A stretch of DNA of 64,000 nucleotides. It comes from Candidatus Nucleicultrix amoebiphila FS5. GTDB taxonomy: Bacteria > Pseudomonadota > Alphaproteobacteria > Caedimonadales > Nucleicultricaceae. Position numbers and translations under genes: made by a program. Below, one piece after another: positions 8,478 through 9,392 of the stretch. Where the stretch lies: assembly GCF_002117145.1 (NCBI RefSeq), contig NZ_CP008743.1, positions 1,116,001 to 1,180,000 on the forward strand. Direction: 5' to 3'. Numbering within the stretch: the first letter of the stretch is position 1; every line of letters begins with the position of its first letter. Below the pieces are notes generated by a model. The model was not told the DNA's origin. It saw nothing but the letters and a program-made list of their open reading frames with translations, and ran no database searches.

Positions 8478-9392
8478 ATGAACTTTCAGAAATTTGGGAT
8501 TTTTCTTTCTCTAATCTTGACCGTAGAAGGAACACATTTCTGCGCATTTGCCACGGACGCCTTAAAAGAAGAAGGGGAGAACACTTCATCACAACCCTCA
8601 TTTTCCAAGAAAATTACACCCGATGAAGAAAGGCTCTCCTATCAAAAATTAGGGTTTACGACAGAAGAAGAATTATTAAATTTTGTATTGGCTGTCTCTA
8701 CCGGTGACGAAAGCTCATTACCGAGCGGATCTGCTTCTGAAGCGCTCTCTTCCAAAGATCAGTTTACTCATTTTGATATTCCAGAAGGGGATGAAGAGGC
8801 CCTTATTCAAAAAGTGTTAGAATTATCAAAGTTTGAAGAAAGCTCCGAGAAACCTGATAGAGAGGAAGTGACAATTATAACAGCCCCTCATTCTCCAAAT
8901 TTTGATGAGAAAGAAGAAAAAAAAGCATTCGTGATCTTCAAACATGAACAAGACTCTGAAAAATCTGATGATGACGATTTAACGGTTGATCGTGTACAAA
9001 AGTCTCAGAAAGTCGACGTTGTTGATCTTACGAGCGATGAGGAAGTGACTTTTGTGCCGTCTAAAAAATCCCGACTCAATAGAATTGCCGAAGAACATGG
9101 GGAGTGGGTAAAATCTTTGAGAAGAGAGTCACAGCTTATCCTTTTAGAGCAACAGCAAGCTGGCCTAGAAGAGCAACTCCTTGATGAGTTACTTGATCTT
9201 GAGACAAGAAAATTCTTAGAGGAAGAAAAGAAAACTTTACCTGAAAAAATAGCCCGCGCCCGCAATCGCTTCAAGACTCTTGTACAAGCTAATCCAATTC
9301 ATGAAAAGTTGTTGCAATCAGGATTTACTGAAATTGAAATTCAAAAAGCCAAGAAAAAGAAATTTCTGAATTTTTATAATGATCTTGCCTGA
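8478..9392 (+). CDS. Exported acidic protein with UIM-like and SUMO-interacting-like motifs
   Basis: A 304-aa protein of no recognised family. Residues 1-25 form a signal peptide ending FCAFA. Residues 63-77 (EEELLNFVLAVSTGD) and 105-120 (DEEALIQKVLELSKFE) both fit the ubiquitin-interacting motif pattern of acidic cap, hydrophobic, x-x-A, hydrophobic-x-x-S-x-x-acid, except that the alanine is valine in each. Residues 179-190 (VDVVDLTSDEEV) match the hydrophobic core plus acidic tail of eukaryotic SUMO-interacting motifs. Residues 195-265 are charged, Glu/Leu-rich and probably coiled-coil. The C-terminus is lysine-rich. It may be a host-directed secreted protein that binds ubiquitin or SUMO conjugates, but short linear motifs can arise by chance in acidic sequence. 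Confidence 0.8.
   Translation: MNFQKFGIFLSLILTVEGTHFCAFATDALKEEGENTSSQPSFSKKITPDEERLSYQKLGFTTEEELLNFVLAVSTGDESSLPSGSASEALSSKDQFTHFDIPEGDEEALIQKVLELSKFEESSEKPDREEVTIITAPHSPNFDEKEEKKAFVIFKHEQDSEKSDDDDLTVDRVQKSQKVDVVDLTSDEEVTFVPSKKSRLNRIAEEHGEWVKSLRRESQLILLEQQQAGLEEQLLDELLDLETRKFLEEEKKTLPEKIARARNRFKTLVQANPIHEKLLQSGFTEIEIQKAKKKKFLNFYNDLA

What the first reader, a model, noticed from the sequence alone, without database searches (positions are those of the whole stretch)
8478..9392. Exported protein with two UIM-like helices and a eukaryote-style SUMO-interacting motif
Seen: a signal peptide, two helices fitting the ubiquitin-interacting motif layout (residues 63-77 and 105-120), and VDVVDLTSDEEV (179-190), which closely resembles the canonical hydrophobic-plus-acidic SIM. 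Known: bacteria lack SUMO and most lack ubiquitin, while secreted effectors of intracellular bacteria can mimic host ubiquitin-system motifs. Inference: this may be an undescribed host-directed effector that reads ubiquitin/SUMO marks. Both UIM-like helices carry Val instead of the conserved Ala, which may reduce or alter binding.
Basis: partly seen in the sequence, partly recalled or inferred. Interest (0 to 1): 0.85.

Follow-up and report, generated by a model that had tools for sequence, protein, structure and literature searches.

The report
Exported SUMO-motif protein of intranuclear symbiont
A bacterium that probably lives inside amoeba nuclei encodes a small orphan family of exported proteins carrying a peptide that looks just like the one eukaryotic proteins use to grip the SUMO tag, so they may be host-directed effectors, although no binding or delivery has been shown.

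Summary
The ORF at 8478-9392 (304 aa) is real: ribosome-binding site, Sec signal peptide, a long disordered acidic linker with VDVVDLTSDEEV at 179-190, and a C-terminal helical domain predicted with good confidence. Two paralogues exist, both in the same genome (G000:C1:1.303-1.306 Mb). They share that C-terminal domain, have signal peptides, and carry IIDLT / ILDLT plus a LVDIDDPES-type peptide just before the domain. So SIM-like peptides recur through the family, in an otherwise fast-diverging linker. [VI][VIL]DLT occurs in only three of 122 exported-like proteins sampled: the three paralogues. No relative was found elsewhere.

The UIM claim for this protein is weak: 14 bits against a Pfam cut-off of 21, Val for the key Ala in both helices, absent from the paralogues. 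A lipoprotein elsewhere in the genome does carry three canonical UIMs above the Pfam cut-offs.

The gene lies beside three signal-peptide-bearing GNAT-like acetyltransferases, which need acetyl-CoA and so suggest export into the host. Periplasmic proteins of the related intranuclear Holospora are released into the host nucleus, a precedent.

Best reading: an exported, host-nucleus-directed SUMO reader. This is inferred; binding and delivery are untested. SIM-bearing bacterial effectors are already known (SulF, ErnA).

The parts
8467..8471 (+). AAGGA ribosome-binding site
   Evidence: sequence read directly
8478..9392 (+). ORF, 304 aa, orphan exported protein with SIM-like motif
   Evidence: ORF list; coding status backed by two paralogues
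8478..8552 (+). Sec signal peptide, residues 1-25 (FCAFA|T)
   Evidence: sequence; simple heuristic
8664..8708 (+). UIM-like helix 1, residues 63-77 (Val for Ala); status doubtful
   Evidence: no Pfam hit; loose pattern only
8790..8837 (+). UIM-like helix 2, residues 105-120 (Val for Ala); status doubtful
   Evidence: Pfam UIM 14 bits, cut-off 21
9012..9047 (+). SIM-like motif VDVVDLTSDEEV, residues 179-190
   Evidence: family recurrence
9018..9062 (+). VVDLT-SDEEVT-FVPS block, residues 181-195, matching IIDLT..VFPS and ILDLT..ILPS in the paralogues
   Evidence: only these three among 411 sampled genes; pattern chosen after inspection
9063..9083 (+). short basic stretch KKSRLNR, residues 196-202, possible weak NLS
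   Evidence: sequence; not tested; K-K/R-x-K/R motifs are common in this genome
9060..9356 (+). C-terminal helical domain, residues about 195-293, shared by the three paralogues
   Evidence: AlphaFold2 pLDDT about 85-90 over most of it; profile search; no PDB or viral fold match
9622..10275 (+). neighbour: GNAT acetyltransferase with signal peptide
   Evidence: Pfam Acetyltransf_1 E 3.6e-16
12775..14064 (+). neighbour: exported GNAT-like protein with basic clusters after the signal peptide
   Evidence: Pfam Acetyltransf_3 19.5 bits, below cut-off 25.4
14135..15223 (+). neighbour: exported GNAT acetyltransferase
   Evidence: Pfam Acetyltransf_3 E 2e-9

Best explanation
A Sec-exported effector of an intranuclear amoeba symbiont that reads SUMO. 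Step 1 (predicted from sequence): Sec exports it to the periplasm. Step 2 (inferred from Holospora): it is released into the host nucleus. Step 3 (inferred from the motif): VDVVDLTSDEEV adds a beta strand to the SUMO groove, its valine/leucine core filling the groove and the S/D/E tail meeting SUMO's basic patch. Step 4 (inferred): the motif docks the conserved helical C-terminal domain onto SUMO-modified chromatin or stress-response proteins and competes with host SIM proteins. The two paralogues would do the same with several SIM-like peptides each.
For: Motif letter-exact and rare: about 0.5% of shuffles; 3 of 122 exported-like proteins sampled, all paralogues. Recurrence: the paralogues carry IIDLT and ILDLT followed by PhiPhiPS, and [LI][LI]VDIDDPES before the C-terminal domain (9 of 10 identical between the two, against 36% for the linker). 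The profile aligns this position to the window's VDVVDLTSDEE (E 4e-9). The linker has an excess of SIM-like cores in the window protein (4 v 0.56, p 0.0006) and L003 (3 v 0.21, p 0.0004), borderline in L002. Linker predicted disordered, C-terminus folded. Neighbouring exported GNAT-like proteins need a cofactor found in host cytosol/nucleus. Precedents: Holospora periplasmic proteins released into the nucleus (PMC5911502); SulF and ErnA bind SUMO through SIMs.
Against: No binding or translocation data. No homologue outside this genome, so conservation rests on three paralogues of which two are close (50% identity). The window's SIM aligns either to the DLT block or to the VDIDDPES block; which one is unsettled. 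One SIM-like peptide is easy to get in an acidic, hydrophobic-patchy linker (p about 0.1 for a broad SIM definition). Shuffle tests used patterns refined after inspection. No type II secretin was recognised that would carry a periplasmic protein out. Organism identity is inferred.
Confidence: 0.45

Rival explanations
1. An ordinary periplasmic or envelope protein of this lineage: an acidic spacer plus a helical C-terminal domain. The DLT and VDIDD peptides bind a bacterial partner or are coincidental.
For: Signal peptide only; no second-step secretion signal or recognised T2SS secretin; broad SIM pattern p about 0.1; several other acidic exported-like proteins in the genome.
Against: Recurrence of SIM-like cores in three paralogues; beside exported GNAT-like proteins, which would be idle in a periplasm.
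Confidence: 0.3
2. A host-directed effector whose work is done by the C-terminal helical domain, the linker motif serving a different host or bacterial ligand than SUMO.
For: The C-terminal domain is the best conserved part (65 of 105 aligned residues between the two close paralogues; predicted fold); the linker motifs differ in number and place between paralogues.
Against: The motif is close to the eukaryotic V/I-D-L-T SIM type, and [LI][LI]VDIDDPES stays 9 of 10 identical in the linker of the two close paralogues.
Confidence: 0.2
3. A ubiquitin reader through the two UIM-like helices, as the first reader proposed in part.
For: Two similar helices EExLPhixxVLxPhiS in one protein; UIMs above cut-off occur in another exported protein of the same genome.
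Against: 14 bits against a cut-off of 21; Val at the conserved Ala in both; absent from the paralogues.
Confidence: 0.05

Closest known systems
SulF (Lpg2832), Legionella pneumophila Dot/Icm effector with a SIM (PMC11115209)
   Same: bacterial protein of an intracellular bacterium with a short hydrophobic SIM core
   Different: T4SS substrate, not Sec; a single effector; binding to SUMOylated Rab7 shown. Sequence relation not tested here
ErnA, Bradyrhizobium type III effector with C-terminal SIM (PMC12267903)
   Same: nuclear effector, no recognised domain, SIM needed for function
   Different: T3SS delivery, NLS and putative DNA-binding sites, plant host; binding shown
Holospora obtusa 89/63/39/15-kDa periplasmic proteins (PMC5911502)
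   Same: periplasmic proteins of an intranuclear relative linked to invasion, three of them reported released during macronucleus infection
   Different: no SIM reported; sequences not compared here
Ehrlichia TRP120 (PMC10028187)
   Same: disordered, motif-rich secreted protein mimicking eukaryotic short linear motifs
   Different: T1SS substrate; is itself SUMOylated, rather than carrying a SIM
UIM family, Pfam PF02809 / PF23625
   Same: helix layout with acidic start and Ser
   Different: Val for Ala; below cut-off. The lipoprotein at G000:C1:419704-420741 does pass

Membership tests
SIM-bearing bacterial effectors (SulF, ErnA type) | hydrophobic V/I/L core with adjacent acidic/Ser stretch | tested here: met
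   VDVVDLTSDEEV, residues 179-190
SIM-bearing bacterial effectors (SulF, ErnA type) | motif lies in a disordered, accessible region | tested here: met
   AlphaFold pLDDT below 50 for residues 63-193, with a shallow alignment
SIM-bearing bacterial effectors (SulF, ErnA type) | motif kept in homologues | tested here: inconclusive
   SIM-like peptides in both paralogues, but the equivalence of positions is ambiguous and no orthologue was found
SIM-bearing bacterial effectors (SulF, ErnA type) | binds SUMO, abolished by core mutation | not testable with these tools
   needs a bench assay
SIM-bearing bacterial effectors (SulF, ErnA type) | reaches the host cell | not testable with these tools
   signal peptide predicted; second step unknown
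UIM (PF02809) | score above Pfam gathering cut-off | tested here: not met
   14 bits, cut-off 21
UIM (PF02809) | conserved Ala followed by Ser four residues on | tested here: not met
   Val at both Ala positions; Ser present
Nucleus-released periplasmic proteins of Holospora | Sec signal peptide | tested here: met
   residues 1-25
Nucleus-released periplasmic proteins of Holospora | found in the host nucleus during infection | not testable with these tools
   needs microscopy
Ulp1/C48 SUMO proteases (same pathway, different mechanism) | PF02902 domain in this genome | tested here: inconclusive
   no hit, but the control genomes also gave none

The most novel reading that the evidence does not exclude
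An intranuclear symbiont carries a dedicated exported kit for reading the host's modifier tags: a three-member, lineage-specific family of Sec-exported poly-SIM proteins, a surface lipoprotein that gained a triple-UIM insert absent from its same-order homologues, and a set of exported acetyltransferases, together acting on SUMO- and ubiquitin-marked nuclear proteins without a dedicated type III or IV injection route.
Probability: 0.25. Interest if true: 0.82.

Novelty: new variant of a known kind. Interest (0 to 1): 0.6.

Why it matters
How bacteria live and multiply inside a eukaryotic nucleus is largely unknown at the protein level. SUMO is concentrated in the nucleus, so a Sec-exported SUMO reader in an intranuclear symbiont would give a testable molecular handle on that niche and would extend SIM mimicry beyond injected effectors of pathogens and rhizobia.

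Tried and rejected
Relatives: none in genome contigs with the protein or with the C-terminal profile, in 57 and 385 relatives/class genomes (the E 0.005-0.01 hits cover 26-42 positions and were taken as chance), in 188 genomes with the full paralogue profile, in viral contigs or in plasmids. Fold search of the C-terminal domain: nothing at E below 0.001 in PDB or BFVD. The PDB profile hit to IcmE/DotG (E 7e-5) has no stretch passing on its own and covers 14 residues; I judged it a repeat-driven chance match, not a secretion link. The G026 hit (E 8e-4) covers the acidic linker; taken as compositional. SUMO proteases: the PF02902 search was uninformative. Type II secretin as exit route: three secretins, one in a Tad pilus-like cluster, one MshL-like below its cut-off, one TPR lipoprotein; none reaches the GspD cut-off. 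NLS enrichment in exported proteins: 1.34 v 0.87 per 1000 aa, not convincing. DLT..PhiPhiPS first failed with an over-strict pattern and was then redefined, so its p values are optimistic.

Full report
What is there. The ORF 8478-9392 (+) encodes 304 aa, with AAGGA just before the ATG. It starts with a signal peptide, followed by an acidic low-complexity linker (22% D/E in the mature protein), and ends in a helical domain. AlphaFold2 on the three-sequence alignment gives pLDDT below 50 for residues 63-193. The C-terminal 134 residues alone give about 85-90 over residues roughly 200-290. VDVVDLTSDEEV sits at 179-190, at the border of the two.

Organism. The window is G000:C1:1116001-1180000 of a 1,838,212-base single contig that is the only member of its family among the genomes searched, with nine other genomes of its order. 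From this I infer Ca. Nucleicultrix amoebiphila, an infectious intranuclear symbiont of Hartmannella (PMC11909080). I could not confirm it directly; my recollection of its genome size is consistent but is not a test. SUMO is recorded in the amoeba Entamoeba (PMC7600729); its presence in the presumed host rests on general knowledge.

Family. Two paralogues lie next to each other at G000:C1:1303210-1306293: L002, 549 aa, and L003, 412 aa. They are 50% identical to each other and 25-29% to the window protein, and the shared part is the C-terminus (A.R..L....NPI...L...GF...EI..A....LNFY). Both have signal peptides by sequence and match no Pfam family. No relative was found in any other genome searched: this is an orphan family.

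Does the SIM hold up? In a 464-kb sample (411 genes, 122 exported-like by a simple heuristic), [VI][VIL]DLT occurs in three exported-like proteins, exactly the three paralogues. Each has about a 0.5% chance by shuffling. Among all sampled genes, DLT followed within 22 residues by PhiPhiPS occurs only in the three. That pattern was chosen after inspection, and since two of the three are close, it amounts to two independent observations. By profile alignment the window's VDVVDLTSDEE falls on the paralogues' [LI][LI]VDIDDPES, itself SIM-like and 9 of 10 identical between the two paralogues in a linker that is only 36% identical. Which equivalence is right is open; under both, SIM-like peptides are a recurring feature. 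A count of hydrophobic cores flanked by acidic residues gives 4 (expected 0.56, p 0.0006) in the window protein, 3 (0.21, p 0.0004) in L003 and 2 (0.38, p 0.05) in L002. Two of the four in the window protein are the UIM-like helices themselves. A broad SIM definition is not significant on its own (p about 0.1).

Do the UIMs hold up? Not for this protein: 14 bits against 21 for residues 105-117, no hit for 63-77, Val for Ala in both, nothing in the paralogues. The genome scan for PF02809 led to a lipoprotein at G000:C1:419704-420741 (346 aa) with three motifs: EERDLQKALVNS, EEQNMQRAIENS, EERQLQKAMEES. It passes the cut-offs of both Pfam UIM families (21.6 and 26.4 bits against 21) and none of 5000 shuffles reached three. 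Its homologues in G001, G002 and G008 match only over the C-terminal part; the two read in full (G002, G008) have the lipobox and C-terminus but no UIM. The repeats thus look gained in this lineage. This is the better ubiquitin-reader candidate of the genome.

Surroundings. Downstream lie three proteins with signal peptides and GNAT similarity: 9622-10275 (Acetyltransf_1, E 3.6e-16), 12775-14064 (weak, below cut-off) and 14135-15223 (Acetyltransf_3, E 2e-9). Two more PF00583 proteins with signal peptides occur elsewhere (L092, L094). Acetyl-CoA is not expected in a periplasm (general knowledge), so such enzymes make most sense in the host. This is indirect support for an export route.

Route. 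No secretin reached the T2SS GspD cut-off. Holospora, an intranuclear relative with much-reduced secretion pathways, nevertheless releases periplasmic proteins during infection of the host macronucleus (PMC5911502). A T6SS is reported for nearly all Holosporineae but is not known to take Sec substrates (general knowledge).

Known kind. SIM-bearing bacterial effectors exist: SulF of Legionella, found by exactly such a motif search, where six of nine predicted candidates bound SUMO (PMC11115209), and ErnA of Bradyrhizobium, acting in the plant nucleus (PMC12267903). A UIM-like region is known in M. tuberculosis PtpA (PMC5557760). In the held library three papers hold the words ubiquitin, Holosporales and effector; by title and abstract none is on this point.

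Verdict. The most likely reading is a Sec-exported SUMO reader acting in the host nucleus (0.45), with an envelope protein carrying a coincidental motif as the main rival (0.3). Shown: gene, motif, paralogues, recurrence, neighbours. Inferred: organism, delivery, SUMO binding, consequence.

Noticed in passing
G000:C1:419704-420741 (L033:9701-10741, - strand): Lipoprotein with three canonical UIM motifs, above both Pfam UIM cut-offs; homologues in G002 and G008 (same order) lack the UIM insert and the G001 match covers only the C-terminal part. Arguably a stronger ubiquitin-reader candidate than the finding itself.
   Followed up: partly
window 9622-10275, 12775-14064, 14135-15223: Three GNAT-like acetyltransferases with signal peptides close together, odd for bacteria because acetyl-CoA is not expected in the periplasm; the second has basic clusters (KRKAP..KKQKAK) just after the signal peptide.
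   Followed up: partly
L092, L094 (G000:C1:1286317, 358620): Two further GNAT proteins with signal peptides elsewhere in the genome.
   Followed up: no
L034:11732-13111 (- strand): Exported 459-aa protein with a GDSGGP trypsin-like signature directly beside the SIM paralogues.
   Followed up: no
window 15248-15673 (- strand): Exported LprI-type lysozyme-inhibitor domain (Pfam E 4.8e-16), near the exported GNATs.
   Followed up: no
L063 (G002:C2:19282): A 561-aa open frame in a same-order genome with TDIIDLTPEDAEE, another SIM-like peptide; no signal peptide seen.
   Followed up: no
L044:10702-12033 and L052:11938-13329: Two exported proteins whose first 32 residues are identical; the second has repeats EESLRxAEExS.
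   Followed up: no
window 8478-9392, residues 272-300: The NPI..L...GFT..EI..A motif resembles the repeat unit of DotG/IcmE in a PDB profile search, probably chance.
   Followed up: partly
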